The position numbers were made by a program, and so were the translations under genes. From Blattabacterium cuenoti (lineage in GTDB: Bacteria > Bacteroidota > Bacteroidia > Flavobacteriales > Blattabacteriaceae): a stretch of DNA of 64,000 nucleotides. Below are positions 7,643 through 25,378 of this stretch, piece after piece (the first letter of the stretch is position 1; every line of letters begins with the position of its first letter). A model generated the notes under the pieces. That model ran no database searches and was not told the DNA's origin. It saw nothing but the letters and a program-made list of their open reading frames with translations. The DNA is taken from NCBI RefSeq assembly GCF_014251955.1, contig NZ_CP059203.1:425963-489962 (forward strand), written 5' to 3'.

Positions 7643-7972
7643 TTAATTTTCATTCTTTGTCTCTGTTATTTTTATTTTTCCGTTTAACAAATATTGAATA
7701 GCAATAGATGTAGGTTTTGGTAATCTTTCATAAAATTTGGATAATTCTATTTGTTCTTTATTTTCAAATATTTCTTCCAAATTATTTTTATTCATTATGT
7801 TGAATTCTTCTAATTTCTTATCCAAATCATTTTTTAAATGAAAACTAATTTTTTGACTTACTTTTTCTAAAATACAAATGATTTCATAAATATTACTTCC
7901 TGATAATTTTTCCAATACTATACGATCTATAGTTTCAGTATTTATTGGTGCCTTAATCTTTTCAAGATTCAT
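7643..7972 (-). CDS. rpoZ: DNA-directed RNA polymerase subunit omega
   Basis: Omega is the small RNA polymerase subunit that helps assemble beta'. The 109-aa protein has the Bacteroidetes omega pattern: an N-terminal PINTETIDRIVLEKLSGSNIYEIICILEK region, then a conserved ENKEQIELSKFYERLPKP tail block. In flavobacteria it follows bamD, as here, and the two overlap by 4 nt (7969-7972). coaBC, often next in this order, is absent. Confidence 0.85.
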   Translation of the reverse strand: MNLEKIKAPINTETIDRIVLEKLSGSNIYEIICILEKVSQKISFHLKNDLDKKLEEFNIMNKNNLEEIFENKEQIELSKFYERLPKPTSIAIQYLLNGKIKITETKNEN

Positions 7973-8502
7973 ATTTTTTTATAATACTTCATCAAAGAAT
8001 GATAAAAAAATTTCAATTCTTTTATACAAGGAGAATTTGGATACAATTGAATATATTCAGAATATGAATCCAAAAAATCGAAAATATTTTTTTTATTTTT
8101 ATTATTAATAGCTATTCTGTATTTTATAACACAAATTTTATATAAAGCTTTTTCTTTTAAACTACTTTTTGGAAAATCATTTATAAAATTTTGAAAAGAA
8201 ATTAAAGCTGCAGAATATTTATGAATAAAAAAATATGTATTAGCTATAGAATAATCTCTCCTTTCAAGTTTCTTAAACAATTTATTCAATAAAATATCTA
8301 CTTCTATTTTTTTAGAATTTGGAAATTGTTTAACAAACTTATTTAACCTATCAATAGCCATATTTGTGCTTCTATTTATATTTATTGGTGGATGATCAAA
8401 AACACATTTTTTATATTCTTGCATACTTCTACTATATCCTGTTAATGTTAATGAAAATAATGTAAAAAACAATAACAAAGAAATAATTTTATTTTTATTC
8501 AT
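7969..8502 (-). CDS. bamD: Outer membrane assembly factor BamD, N-terminally shortened and without lipobox cysteine
   Basis: BamD is the TPR lipoprotein of the BAM complex, which folds outer-membrane proteins. Residues 27-177 follow the C-terminal half of flavobacterial BamD: AIDRLNKFVKQFPNSK, then KLERRDYSIANTYF and SAALISFQNFINDFPKS. The family is usually about 260-280 aa; this protein is 177. It goes from a signal peptide (MNKNKIISLLLFFTLFSLTLTG) almost straight into the third TPR, so about 100 residues are missing. The residue after LTG should be the lipid-bearing Cys but is Tyr (TAT, one base from TGT). Call based on homology by eye and on the rpoZ neighbour. Confidence 0.8.
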   Translation of the reverse strand: MNKNKIISLLLFFTLFSLTLTGYSRSMQEYKKCVFDHPPININRSTNMAIDRLNKFVKQFPNSKKIEVDILLNKLFKKLERRDYSIANTYFFIHKYSAALISFQNFINDFPKSSLKEKALYKICVIKYRIAINNKNKKNIFDFLDSYSEYIQLYPNSPCIKELKFFYHSLMKYYKKI

Positions 8503-12230: not shown

Positions 12231-12755
12231 ATGGAAAAGAACATAAACATAATAGGTAATAAAGAAAAAGAAAAAAAATCATTACGAACTTATATAGAAA
12301 GTTATGGATGTCAAATGAATGTTTCTGATAGTGAAATAATAGCTTCTTTTTTATTGAAAAAAGGATTTTCTATTACAAATAATTTAGAAGAAGCCAATAT
12401 TATATTAATTAATACTTGTTCTATTCGAGAAAAAGCAGAATTAACTTTAAAATTAAGATTACAGAAACTAAAATATTTGAAATCCATAAAAAGAAAAGAA
12501 CCTCTATTATTTGGAATTTTGGGATGTATGTCTGAGACAATAAAAAAGTTAGATAAAGAAGATCTTGTAGATTTTGTTATTTCTCCAGATTCTTATAGAA
12601 AAATTTCTGATGTTATTTTTTTAGTTAGAAAAAAAAAAAAATATTCACAAATTTTATCTAAAAAAATAAATGAAACTTATGATGATGTAACTCCATATCA
12701 ACTTGATCATAGTAAAAAAAAAAAAAATATTCACAAATTTTATCTAAAAAAATAA
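12231..12755 (+). CDS. miaB: MiaB N-terminal part, cut off by a frameshifting duplication
   Basis: MiaB is the radical-SAM methylthiotransferase that turns i6A37 of tRNA into ms2i6A37. This first piece carries the UPF0004 domain with all three auxiliary-cluster cysteines (SYGCQMN, NTCSIREKAE, GCMSE). After HSKKKK it runs into an altered frame and stops at TAA 12753-12755. The cause is an exact 86-bp tandem duplication (period from 12642 to 12728). Deleting one unit gives an open 476-codon MiaB. One extra A in the A14 tract (12714-12727), or loss of two, would also restore the frame with the repeat kept in. Start chosen at ATG 12231; a GTG precedes it directly. Confidence 0.85.
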   Translation: MEKNINIIGNKEKEKKSLRTYIESYGCQMNVSDSEIIASFLLKKGFSITNNLEEANIILINTCSIREKAELTLKLRLQKLKYLKSIKRKEPLLFGILGCMSETIKKLDKEDLVDFVISPDSYRKISDVIFLVRKKKKYSQILSKKINETYDDVTPYQLDHSKKKKNIHKFYLKK

Positions 12756-12799
12756 ATGAAACTTATGATGATGTAACTCCATATCAACTTGATCATAGT
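12642..12799 (+). repeat. Exact tandem duplication inside miaB (86-bp period)
   Basis: A 72-bp segment at 12642-12713 recurs without a mismatch at 12728-12799. The A tracts around it are A13 (12629-12641), A14 (12714-12727) and A10 (12800-12809). The period of 86 is not a multiple of three, so the second copy is read in another frame. Perfect identity points to a recent event, or to an assembly or sequencing error. The long A tracts suggest misalignment during replication as the origin. Confidence 0.95.
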
Positions 12800-12811
12800 A
12801 AAAAAAAAAGA

Positions 12812-13744
12812 GTGACATCATTTATAAGTATTACAAGAGGATGTGATAATATGTGTACATTTTGTGTAGTTCCTTTTACAAGAGGAAGAGAGAGAAGTAG
12901 TGATCCTAATTCAATACTCAGAGAATGCAAAAATTTATATGAAAAAGGATATAAAGAAGTAACTCTTTTAGGACAAAATGTAGATTCTTATCTTTGGGTT
13001 GGAAGTAATATTTTAAAAAAACAAATTTTTAAAATAAATAGGAATAAAAAAGATTTCTTCGATTTTTCCATGCTTTTGGATTTTTTAGCAAGAAAAATAC
13101 CTTTTATGAGAATACGTTTTTCCACATCTAATCCTCACGATATGTCTGAAAGTGTCATAAAAGTAATATCAAAATATTCAAATATATGTAAACATATTCA
13201 TTTACCAGTTCAATCAGGAAGTAATAAAATATTAAAATTAATGAATAGAAAATATACTCGTGAAAGTTATATTTCTTTAATAAAAAAAATCAGATCTATA
13301 ATTCCTGAATGTTCTATTTCACATGATATTATAACTGGATTTTGCAATGAAAATGAAGAAGACCATAAAAAAACTATTAGCTTAATGAAGAATGTAAAGT
13401 ATAATTATGGATATATGTTTTCTTATTCTCCTAGACCTGGAACTTTTGCATACAAAAAATATCAAGATAATGTTCCAGAAAATGTAAAAAAAAGACGTTT
13501 AAAAGAAATCATTGACGTGCAAAGACTTCATTCCATTTTTTATATGAAAAAATATATGGAGAAAACACAAGAAGTTTTAATAGAAGGAGAATCTAAAAGG
13601 AAAAATCAGGATTGGTATGGAAGAAATACTCAAAATACTGTAGTAGTATTTCCTAAAGTTATAGGAAAAAAAATAGGAGATATAGTTTATGTAAAAATAA
13701 AAAATTACACTTCTGCAACATTGATAGGAGTAATAGAAAAATAG
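12812..13744 (+). CDS. miaB: MiaB C-terminal part (radical SAM and TRAM domains)
   Basis: This is the second piece of miaB. The frame is open from 12716, through the second repeat copy, to the TAG at 13744; the GTG at 12812 is only the first formal start codon and lies inside the gene. It has the radical-SAM cluster motif CDNMCTFC, the QNVDSY and HLPVQSGSNKIL blocks, and a C-terminal TRAM domain (TQEVLIEGESKRKN, GDIVYVKIKNYTSATLIGVI). It shows no decay beyond the duplication, which suggests the lesion is new or is suppressed. Alone it would lack the auxiliary cluster. Confidence 0.85.
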   Translation: MTSFISITRGCDNMCTFCVVPFTRGRERSSDPNSILRECKNLYEKGYKEVTLLGQNVDSYLWVGSNILKKQIFKINRNKKDFFDFSMLLDFLARKIPFMRIRFSTSNPHDMSESVIKVISKYSNICKHIHLPVQSGSNKILKLMNRKYTRESYISLIKKIRSIIPECSISHDIITGFCNENEEDHKKTISLMKNVKYNYGYMFSYSPRPGTFAYKKYQDNVPENVKKRRLKEIIDVQRLHSIFYMKKYMEKTQEVLIEGESKRKNQDWYGRNTQNTVVVFPKVIGKKIGDIVYVKIKNYTSATLIGVIEK

Positions 13745-16447: not shown

Positions 16448-18097
<1,650 letters not shown>

Positions 18098-18119
18098 TAG
18101 TGAGTTCCAATAATCCTCA

Positions 18120-18157
18120 AAAAAAAATAGTGTCTTACATAGACACTATTTTTTTAT
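18120..18157 (+). terminator. Strong bidirectional terminator between groEL and kdsC
   Basis: AATAGTGTC pairs with GACACTATT around the 7-nt loop TTACATA (18135-18141), flanked by A7 upstream and T7 downstream. The A and T runs make it work on both strands, for groEL (plus) and kdsC (minus, stop at 18177). Confidence 0.9.
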
Positions 18158-18176
18158 GATGGATATTTTTTTTATA

Positions 18177-18701
18177 TTATATCCAATTTTTTTGAATCTT
18201 CAGAGTTTGTTCTATTACATCTCTTACACAACCTTTTCCACCTTCTTTTGGAGAAATATATTTAGATATTTCTTTTACTTCTTGAACTGCATCTATTGGA
18301 GAACATGGTAAGGCAACAGATTTCATGATTTCAATATCTGGAATATCATCTCCCATATAAAGAATTTTTTTCTTAGTAATATTTAATATTCTGCAATACT
18401 CATCTAAATATTCTTTTTTATTATCAACCCCTTGATAAATATAACGAATATTAAGTCTTCTTAAACGTCTAAATACCATTAAATCAGATCCTCTAGTTAT
18501 AATACATAAATTATATCCTTTTTTTTTTGCTAATTGCATTGCATATCCATCTTTAGCAAACATTTGACGAACCATGTTCCCATCAGGAAATAAATTTAAA
18601 GTACAATTAGTTAACACCCCATCGACATCAAATATAAAAGTATTAATATCATTCATAATATTTCTATAGCTACGACTACTACTACTCATAAGCAAATCCA
18701 T
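18177..18701 (-). CDS. kdsC: 3-Deoxy-D-manno-octulosonate 8-phosphate phosphatase (KdsC-type HAD)
   Basis: KdsC removes phosphate from KDO-8-P for LPS inner core. The 174-aa protein is a C0-type HAD phosphatase: nucleophile motif FDVDGVLT (D25, D27), IITRG, a lysine in the DNKKEYLDEY region, and MGDDIPDIEIM. The end GGKGCVRDVIEQTLK is typical of KdsC. The first residues MDLLMSSSSRS come from a short AGT-type codon run; the true start may be the second Met (18689) or MNDINTF (18656). Confidence 0.88.
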   Translation of the reverse strand: MDLLMSSSSRSYRNIMNDINTFIFDVDGVLTNCTLNLFPDGNMVRQMFAKDGYAMQLAKKKGYNLCIITRGSDLMVFRRLRRLNIRYIYQGVDNKKEYLDEYCRILNITKKKILYMGDDIPDIEIMKSVALPCSPIDAVQEVKEISKYISPKEGGKGCVRDVIEQTLKIQKNWI

Positions 18702-18712
18702 TCATTGATCAA

Positions 18713-18792
18713 TCATTTCTTTCTTTATTTTTTTTGTTTTCTTTATCTTTCTTTTAATTGCATAACATAAATAACAAGAAAGAAAGAAATGA
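18713..18792. repeat. 14-bp inverted repeat with 52-nt spacer
   Basis: TCATTTCTTTCTTT (18713-18726) is the exact reverse complement of AAAGAAAGAAATGA (18779-18792). It fills most of the 149-nt gap between the kdsC start and the end of the PUR-like gene. Function unknown; the purine/pyrimidine bias makes a chance match easier. Nothing else is visible in the gap. Confidence 0.4.
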
Positions 18793-18850
18793 ATACGATA
18801 TGTATGCAATAATTTTTTACATTACATTACAATTAATCAATAATTAAAAA

Positions 18851-19240
18851 TTAAATATCTTCAAAATTAATATTTGTAAAATTCTTTATTTCTGATGTTT
18901 TTTTTTGAACATCTTTCATTTCTTGATTAAATGTATGATTTTTAAAATCTTTTTGATGACGTTCTGAAATGACTTCTCTTCCTTTTTCATTGATAATAAA
19001 TCGAATCATATCATCAAGAATACTTTGAAATTTAGAAAAATCTTCTTTGTACAAATAAATTTTATGTTTTTTATAAGTTATTTCTCCTGTTTCAGAAAAA
19101 TTTTTCTTACTTTCAGTAATAGTTAAATAATAATCTCCTGCTCTCGTCTCTCTTGCGTCAAAAAAATATGTACGACTACCAGTTTTTAGAGTACGTGAAC
19201 AGATTTCATTTCTTTCTTTAATCTTTTCTTTTTCGTCCAT
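18851..19240 (-). CDS. PUR-alpha-like DNA/RNA-binding protein (DUF3276)
   Basis: The 129-aa protein matches the Bacteroidetes DUF3276/PUR family: SRTLKTGSRTYFFDARETRAGDYYLTITESKK, then KHKIYLYKEDFSKFQSILDDMIRFI. The PUR fold is a single-stranded nucleic-acid binder; its role in bacteria is not established. The C-terminal tail is charged and variable. A TAGATTTG promoter box lies 36 nt upstream. It is a single-gene unit. Confidence 0.85.
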   Translation of the reverse strand: MDEKEKIKERNEICSRTLKTGSRTYFFDARETRAGDYYLTITESKKNFSETGEITYKKHKIYLYKEDFSKFQSILDDMIRFIINEKGREVISERHQKDFKNHTFNQEMKDVQKKTSEIKNFTNINFEDI

Positions 19241-24068: not shown

Positions 24069-24076
24069 TAAATTTG
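24069..24076 (+). promoter_or_regulatory. Candidate Bacteroidetes -7 box for ndh
   Basis: TAAATTTG ends 18 nt before the ATG at 24095. Its TTTG overlaps the TTG at 24074 that could be mistaken for the gene's start. Confidence 0.45.
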
Positions 24077-24094
24077 TACGTCAAATTTTTGATT

Positions 24095-25378
24095 ATGAAT
24101 ATTCCAACAGTAAATAATCTAAAAAGAGTTGTTATTATTGGTGCTGGTTTTGCTGGATTACAAGTAGCAAAAAAATTAAAAAGAGAAAAATTTCAAGTTG
24201 TACTTATAGATAAAAATAATTATCATACATTTCAACCTTTATTATATCAAGTAGCTACAGCAGGATTGGAGCCAGATTCTATTGCACATTCTATTAGAAC
24301 AATTATCAAAAAAAAAAAAAATTTCTTTTTTCGATTAGCTTACGTTCATTACATTAATACAAAAAAACAAAAAATATACACAAGTGTGGGGTCTTTATTT
24401 TATGATTATTTAATTATGGCTACAGGATCTGTAACTAATTATTTTGGAAATAAAAACATTGAATCTTTTGCTTTACCTATGAAATCTATTCCAGAAGCAT
24501 TGGATTTAAGGAGTCTTATTTTACAAGATTTTGAATCTGCTTTATTGATTAAAGATTCAAAAAAAAGAGAACGACTTATGACTTTTGTTATTGTTGGTGG
24601 AGGACCAACTGGAGTAGAATTAGCAGGAGCTTTAGCAGAAATGAAAAGATATGTTTTACCAAATGATTATCCTGATTTGGATATTCAACGGATGAATATC
24701 CATTTATTACAGGCTTCTACTAGATTATTAGATGGTATGTCTGAAGAATCAGCAAAAGAAGCTTTTAAAAATTTAAAAGAATTAGGAGTAACTATTTGGC
24801 TAGATTGTTTAGTAAAAGATTATGATGGAAAAATCGTTTTTATAGACAAAAATAAGAGTATAGAATCCTCTAATGTAATATGGGCTGCAGGAGTAAAAGG
24901 AGCTATCATAAAAGGGTTTCTAAAAGAGGATATGAAAGGACAAAGAATTTTAGTGGATAATTATTTCAAAGCTATTAGATATCAAAACATTTTTGCTATT
25001 GGAGATATTGCTTGTATGATAACAAATCCATATTATCCAAATGGTCATCCTATGACGGCACAACCAGCCATACAACAAGGAAACTGTCTTGCGGGAAATT
25101 TAAATCTTTTTTTAGAGAAAAAACCTATAAAACCTTTTAAATATAAAAATTTAGGATCCATGGCAACTATTGGAAGAAACAAAGCAGTATGTGATTTTCC
25201 ATATTTCAAATTAAAAGGTTTTCTAGCATGGATTATTTGGATGTTTGTTCACTTAGTTAGTTTAGTTGGATTTAGAAATAGAGTCATTGCTTTAATGAAT
25301 TGGATTATTCAATATTTTCATTATCACAAAAGTGTACGATTAATCATAAGACCATTTCATAGAAAAAAAATTAATTGA
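24095..25378 (+). CDS. ndh: Type II NADH dehydrogenase
   Basis: NDH-2 passes electrons from NADH to quinone without pumping protons. From ATG 24095 the protein is 427 aa. It has the FAD motif VVIIGAGFAGLQVAKKL near the N-terminus, the NADH motif VIVGGGPTGVELAGALAE, the flavin block FAIGDIA, and a C-terminal amphipathic/hydrophobic part (GFLAWIIWMFVHLVSLVGF) for membrane binding. It contains an in-frame A14 tract (24308-24321). Nearby menaquinone genes would supply its acceptor. The 3' end overlaps the convergent isochorismate synthase gene by 22 bp. Confidence 0.93.
   Translation: MNIPTVNNLKRVVIIGAGFAGLQVAKKLKREKFQVVLIDKNNYHTFQPLLYQVATAGLEPDSIAHSIRTIIKKKKNFFFRLAYVHYINTKKQKIYTSVGSLFYDYLIMATGSVTNYFGNKNIESFALPMKSIPEALDLRSLILQDFESALLIKDSKKRERLMTFVIVGGGPTGVELAGALAEMKRYVLPNDYPDLDIQRMNIHLLQASTRLLDGMSEESAKEAFKNLKELGVTIWLDCLVKDYDGKIVFIDKNKSIESSNVIWAAGVKGAIIKGFLKEDMKGQRILVDNYFKAIRYQNIFAIGDIACMITNPYYPNGHPMTAQPAIQQGNCLAGNLNLFLEKKPIKPFKYKNLGSMATIGRNKAVCDFPYFKLKGFLAWIIWMFVHLVSLVGFRNRVIALMNWIIQYFHYHKSVRLIIRPFHRKKIN

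What the first reader, a model, noticed from the sequence alone, without database searches (positions are those of the whole stretch)
12231..13744. miaB split by an exact 86-bp out-of-frame tandem duplication; a 14-A tract could restore the frame
Seen: a 72-bp segment repeats without mismatch (12642-12713 and 12728-12799), separated by A14. The period of 86 shifts the frame and stops translation at 12755. Removing one unit leaves an intact 476-codon MiaB, so the duplication is the only lesion. With 15 or 12 A in the middle tract the whole 505- or 504-codon frame would be open with a duplicated spacer between the two domains. Known: transcriptional slippage at poly(A) tracts restores frames in AT-rich insect endosymbionts. 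Inference: either slippage makes some full-length MiaB, or this is a newborn pseudogene, or an assembly error.
Basis: partly seen in the sequence, partly recalled or inferred. Interest (0 to 1): 0.85.

Follow-up and report, generated by a model that had tools for sequence, protein, structure and literature searches.

The report
Young duplication breaks a symbiont gene
In a cockroach symbiont (Blattabacterium), a recent exact copy-paste of 86 bases between two runs of A has knocked the tRNA-modification gene miaB out of frame; this looks like ordinary gene decay that copying slips at the A-run might partly correct, but only reads or RNA data could show that.

Summary
A 72-bp segment of miaB is repeated exactly (12642-12713, 12728-12799) around A14, period 86; translation stops at 12753-12755. 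One unit alone gives an intact 475-aa MiaB; of short tract-length changes, only +1 or -2 A in the middle tract opens the duplicated frame. The genome is a 639-kb Blattabacterium. All 48 other genomes held for the genus have full-length miaB, so the lesion is private and young. Both duplication ends lie inside A-runs that are interrupted by G in the nearest relative, so slippage or unequal exchange between A-runs explains it. Best reading: a real, recent tandem duplication that largely inactivates miaB in an eroding genome, with possible residual full-length product from slippage at A14. In half the genome sampled, two other genes are broken (ung; an FtsX-type permease at A11), while about 25 other A/T runs of 11 or more sit in open frames, arguing against general homopolymer miscalling. 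The closest relative has long in-frame tandem arrays in genes. Not excluded: a local assembly error (another genus assembly fails at a miaA A-run), true A15, or a mixed population. Rescue is untested; the kind is known from Buchnera and Blochmannia.

The parts
12231..12755 (+). 5' part of miaB: UPF0004 (methylthiotransferase N-terminal) domain, linker, then out-of-frame residues and TAA at 12753-12755
   Evidence: Pfam UPF0004 E=4.9e-23 at residues 19-116
12629..12641 (+). A13 tract, left border of first unit; the nearest relative G025 has AAAAAGAAAAAAGAA here
12642..12713 (+). first copy of 72-bp linker segment
12714..12727 (+). A14 junction tract; only tract where +1 or -2 A restores the full frame
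12728..12799 (+). second, identical copy of the 72-bp segment, read out of frame
12800..12809 (+). A10 tract, right border of second unit; the nearest relative has AAAGAAAAGAAAG here
12812..13744 (+). 3' part of miaB in its original frame: radical SAM (GCDNMCTFC motif) and TRAM domains; possible GTG start at 12812
   Evidence: Pfam Radical_SAM E=3.1e-27, TRAM E=1.3e-11

Best explanation
miaB of this Blattabacterium suffered a recent tandem duplication by replication slippage or unequal exchange between two poly(A) runs flanking a 72-bp piece of the interdomain linker. G-to-A changes had merged A-rich lysine codons into uninterrupted runs, making about 10 bp or more of perfect homology on both sides. 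Because 72+14=86 is not a multiple of three, the main product is a 174-residue UPF0004 fragment and the radical SAM/TRAM half is not made in frame. Shown: the exact repeat, A-run borders, the frame, absence in 48 relatives, young age. Inferred: the mutational mechanism; loss or strong reduction of ms2i6A37 tRNA modification; a minority of full-length 504-aa product by +1 A transcriptional slippage (or -1 ribosomal slippage) at A14. I take the locus to be at the start of gene erosion, leaky rather than stably rescued.
For: Exact 86-bp period with both borders inside A-runs and no other bases at the junction. G025 has G-interrupted A-runs at these places. miaB is full length in all 48 other genus genomes. 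No difference between copies: with 10.7 differences expected at the G025 split (27.9 at the synonymous rate), the duplication is younger than about 28% (11%) of that divergence at 95%. The rest of the gene is intact with dN/dS 0.26 against G025. Erosion context: in about 304 kb of this genome, an FtsX-type permease frameshifted at A11 and ung with at least two frameshifts; ung is also split or not found in many relatives. G000 miaB has 31 private amino-acid changes against 21 in G025, other genes 476:594 (Fisher p=0.045). Tandem duplication is real in this clade: G025 has 51x14.5, 60x38, 39x4.6 and 21x4.4 bp arrays in open genes and a 27x28 array beside an rpsA-like gene.
Against: No reads or RNA were available. 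Only one assembly shows the lesion. The rate acceleration is weak (p=0.045). The C-terminal half is well conserved, as expected for a young lesion but equally for a functional gene. An assembly misjoin at homopolymers would look the same.
Confidence: 0.48

Rival explanations
1. Slippage-rescued gene: RNA polymerase adds one A at A14 in a sizeable share of transcripts (or ribosomes slip -1), giving a functional 504-aa MiaB with a 29-residue linker duplication, as for frameshifted genes of Buchnera and Blochmannia.
For: Needed shift is +1 A, the commonest transcriptional indel in Buchnera A/T runs, rising exponentially with run length (PMC5574713). 12-50% corrected transcripts are reviewed for endosymbiont poly(A) frameshifts (PMC5009743), about 30% in PMC3017870. 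The insertion falls in the length-variable interdomain linker. In the same genus miaA is frameshifted at a poly(A) tract in G034, G060 and G063, each needing +1 A and otherwise intact.
Against: Spacing of the two domains would be 178 residues against 137-155 in 103 other MiaB proteins. No conservation of the frameshift in any relative, so no sign that selection keeps it. [quoted passage not shown]
Confidence: 0.2
2. Assembly error: the true locus has one unit, and two contigs ending in A-runs were joined without merging their 95-bp overlap.
For: Both borders are homopolymers, where assemblies break; G018 of the same genus has T12+A117+164 N at the miaA poly(A) tract. A 95-bp repeat is about the read length used for some Blattabacterium genomes (k=60 was about two thirds of a read, PMC4567559). 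The single-unit gene is intact.
Against: Short-read assembly usually collapses rather than adds exact repeats (general knowledge). No other such duplication in 304 kb of this genome. The genome carries other real-looking lesions.
Confidence: 0.2
3. Miscounted tract: the duplication is real but the middle tract is A15 (or A12), so the gene is intact with an in-frame 87-bp (84-bp) duplication, like the in-frame arrays of G025.
For: All G025 arrays seen have periods divisible by three; Blochmannia tolA has 87-bp arrays (PMC4389277). The gene is one base away from open.
Against: About 25 A/T runs of 11-15 in this assembly lie in open frames, only two at breaks, so single-base miscalls are not common here.
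Confidence: 0.09
4. Mixed population: perfect adjacent repeats recombine back, so intact single-unit and broken two-unit chromosomes coexist in the polyploid symbiont and enough MiaB is made from the former.
For: 95-bp perfect tandem repeat; recA is present and intact. High reversion rates of such repeats are general bacterial knowledge.
Against: No read data; the assembly shows one allele.
Confidence: 0.03

Closest known systems
Poly(A)-tract frameshifts of insect endosymbionts with transcriptional slippage (Buchnera, Blochmannia)
   Same: AT-rich reduced genome, frame off by one base at a long A-run, +1 A would restore it, rest of gene conserved
   Different: Frame is lost through an 86-bp duplication, not a one-base indel; the slippage run is the duplication junction; no RNA evidence and no conservation across species
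Recent pseudogenes of Blattabacterium (1-9 per genome in PMC6039017)
   Same: Private, young lesion in a gene intact in relatives; same genome has other broken genes
   Different: Lesion is a tandem duplication; whole coding information still present
In-frame tandem arrays in endosymbiont genes (Blochmannia tolA, 81-102 bp units; arrays in G025)
   Same: Tandem duplication inside a coding gene, often A-rich units
   Different: Those periods keep the frame and many copies; here two copies and period 86 breaks the frame
MiaB (tRNA N6-isopentenyladenosine-37 methylthiotransferase), solved as 7MJV
   Same: All three domains and the radical SAM cysteine motif, E=7e-123 to 7MJV over residues 18-471 of the single-unit protein
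   Different: Interrupted between the UPF0004 and radical SAM domains

Membership tests
MiaB methylthiotransferase | UPF0004 + radical SAM (CxxxCxxC) + TRAM domains | tested here: met
   Pfam hits on the two halves; TIGR01574 is the best NCBIfam model for both halves, each half below the full-length cut-off
MiaB methylthiotransferase | one uninterrupted reading frame | tested here: not met
   TAA at 12753-12755; frame shifts by 86
Endosymbiont poly(A) frameshift rescued by transcriptional slippage | frame restorable by small indel inside a run of about 9 or more A | tested here: met
   +1 or -2 in A14
Endosymbiont poly(A) frameshift rescued by transcriptional slippage | frameshift kept across related strains or species with purifying selection downstream | tested here: not met
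   absent from 48 relatives; young private lesion, so selection after the event cannot be measured
Endosymbiont poly(A) frameshift rescued by transcriptional slippage | mixed transcripts including corrected frame | not testable with these tools
   no RNA data
Nascent pseudogene | disabled frame private to one lineage, otherwise intact gene | tested here: met
Nascent pseudogene | relaxed selection on the lineage | tested here: inconclusive
   31 vs 21 private amino-acid changes, others 476:594, p=0.045
Assembly artefact | reads contradict the assembled sequence | not testable with these tools
   no reads held

The most novel reading that the evidence does not exclude
The linker duplication with its A14 junction is a metastable, self-correcting lesion: RNA polymerase slippage at the junction gives a 504-aa MiaB with a doubled linker, while repeat contraction in some chromosomes restores the ancestral gene, so miaB is kept partly active by two routes that the duplication itself created.
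Probability: 0.1. Interest if true: 0.55.

Novelty: new member of a known kind. Interest (0 to 1): 0.3.

Why it matters
If real, it catches a gene at the moment of breakage in a reductive genome, shows how AT-biased mutation (G-to-A merging of lysine-codon runs) creates the substrate for out-of-frame tandem duplication, and gives a clean test of whether slippage at the new junction buys time for the gene. If an artefact, it flags that homopolymer-bounded duplications in endosymbiont assemblies need read checks before a gene is called lost.

Tried and rejected
General homopolymer miscalling was tested and rejected: about 25 runs of at least 11 A/T in half the genome lie in open frames. A second intact miaB elsewhere was rejected: the region occurs once and the other match (G000:C1:302966-304279, 32% identity) is a paralogue of the MiaB/RimO family. 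Slippage in the first or third tract alone does not open the frame. A two-protein split MiaB (N fragment plus a 310-aa ORF from GTG 12812) fits the domain boundary but has no start-context evidence and no relative has it; left as unlikely. The primary papers on endosymbiont slippage (PMC2567471, PMC2877537) are not held; they are cited through PMC3017870 and PMC5009743.

Full report
WHAT IS THERE. In miaB (12231-13744, + strand) a 72-bp segment occurs twice without a mismatch, at 12642-12713 and 12728-12799, bordered by A13 (12629-12641), separated by A14 (12714-12727) and followed by A10 (12800-12809). The array has TRF score 362; nothing else in the 64-kb window passes 76. Translation from ATG 12231 ends at TAA 12753-12755; removal of one 86-bp unit gives 475 intact codons; of all length changes of the three A-tracts within three bases, only the middle tract at +1 (504 aa) or -2 (503 aa) opens the frame with at most two bases changed. 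The two halves carry UPF0004, and radical SAM plus TRAM; the single-unit protein aligns to the solved MiaB 7MJV over residues 18-471, E=7e-123. No second copy of the region exists in the genome.

WHICH ORGANISM. The window lies in a single 639,415-bp contig. Genomes of the same genus have chromosome lengths of 636,850 (G062), 622,952 (G027), 629,165 (G070) and 632,490 bp (G034), identical to Blattabacterium strains BBge, BNCIN, BGIGA and BPAA in Table 1 of PMC6039017. So this is a Blattabacterium; the strain is not named by the tools.

IS IT PRIVATE AND YOUNG. All 48 other genomes held for the genus have miaB as one full-length match. Three of these matches (G064, G031, G020) were flagged with one or two stops; a second alignment shows none for G031 and one for G020, and these were not traced further, but none is split into two frames. 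The linker between the two domains varies in length and sequence among 36 relatives but is never duplicated. Sister genome G025 (a supported pair with G000 in the MiaB tree) reads AAAAAGAAAAAAGAATATTCA and AATAAAGAAAAGAAAGTA at the two borders, where G000 has uninterrupted A-runs. The two copies show no difference; from gene-average and synonymous divergence to G025, 10.7 and 27.9 differences would be expected if the duplication were as old as the split, so it is younger than about 28% or 11% of that time at 95%. The rest of the gene shows purifying selection (dN/dS 0.26 to G025, dN rank 48 of 55 genes in the window), with a mild excess of private amino-acid changes on the G000 branch (31:21 against 476:594 elsewhere, p=0.045).

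HOW IT AROSE. Both ends of the repeat lie within A-runs and nothing but A separates the units. A slipped or unequal exchange between a left A-run and a right A-run produces precisely left run - unit - hybrid run - unit - right run. This is inference from anatomy. The process is plausible here: G025 carries a 51-bp x14.5 array in a lipoprotein gene homologous to window 7969-8502, 60-bp x38 in an OmpA-like gene, 39-bp x4.6 and 21-bp x4.4 in open genes, with a further 27-bp x28 array just upstream of an rpsA-like gene (these gene names are from reading the translations, not from a family search). All these periods are multiples of three; 86 is not.

WHAT IT DOES. Read literally, the cell makes a 174-residue N-terminal fragment and no in-frame radical SAM half. 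MiaA, the enzyme before MiaB, is intact here, so tRNAs would keep i6A37 without the methylthio group (pathway knowledge; the miaB function is dispensable in E. coli, from general knowledge). Context favours erosion: in about 304 kb of this genome (48%), two further broken genes were found, ung with at least two frameshifts and an FtsX-type permease with one frameshift at A11; ung is split or not found in many relatives and the permease was not found in 13 of 49.

COULD SLIPPAGE RESCUE IT. The needed change, +1 A, is the commonest transcription indel in A/T runs of Buchnera (PMC5574713), and 12-50% corrected transcripts are reviewed for an aphid and an ant endosymbiont (PMC5009743). In the same genus, miaA is off by one at a poly(A) run in G034 (A10, where near-identical G066 has A11), G060 and G063 (A12), each needing +1 and otherwise conserved. 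Against: the 504-aa form would space the domains by 178 residues, outside 137-155 seen in 103 other MiaB proteins, and there is no relative in which the frameshift is kept. Nothing here tests rescue directly.

COULD IT BE AN ARTEFACT. Yes. Assemblies of this genus do fail at such runs: G018 has T12, A117 and 164 N at the same miaA tract. But general miscalling is unlikely: about 25 A/T runs of 11 to 15 bases in the sample lie inside open frames, including A14 at window 24308, and no other comparable duplication occurs in the sample.

VERDICT. Observation confirmed; reading partly supported. Most likely a recent, real, poly(A)-bounded tandem duplication that mostly inactivates miaB in an eroding genome, with leaky correction possible. 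The kind is known; the particular route (duplication junction serving as the slippage run) is a modest twist.

Noticed in passing
L136 (G034:C1:456600-457900), L137 (G063), L138 (G060): miaA, the enzyme before MiaB, is frameshifted at a poly(A) run in three genus genomes (A10, A12, A12), each needing +1 A, with both halves conserved; G066 (A11) and G016 (A13) are intact at the same run. Candidates for slippage rescue or recurrent one-base loss.
   Followed up: partly
L139 (G018:C1:462600-464100), 630-922: Assembly breaks at the same miaA run: T12, A117, then 164 N, a clear homopolymer assembly artefact.
   Followed up: partly
L182 (G000:C1:about 500781-501540, minus strand): ung (uracil-DNA glycosylase) has at least two frameshifts in this genome; UDG is split or not found in many genus members, which fits AT-biased mutation.
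   Followed up: partly
L183 (G000:C1:624351-625340, minus strand): FtsX-type ABC permease frameshifted exactly at an A11 run, again needing +1 A; the gene was not found in 13 of 49 genus genomes.
   Followed up: partly
L044:9450-10190, L184:11325-11502 and 16852-19141, L186:13770-14524, L125:3980-4070 (all G025): Closest relative carries long near-perfect tandem arrays (51x14.5, 39x4.6, 60x38, 27x28, 21x4.4 bp), mostly inside open genes and all with periods divisible by three; the 51-bp array is absent from the homologous gene in the window.
   Followed up: partly
window 24308-24321: A14 run inside an intact 434-codon NADH-dehydrogenase-like ORF (24074-25378), in frame.
   Followed up: no
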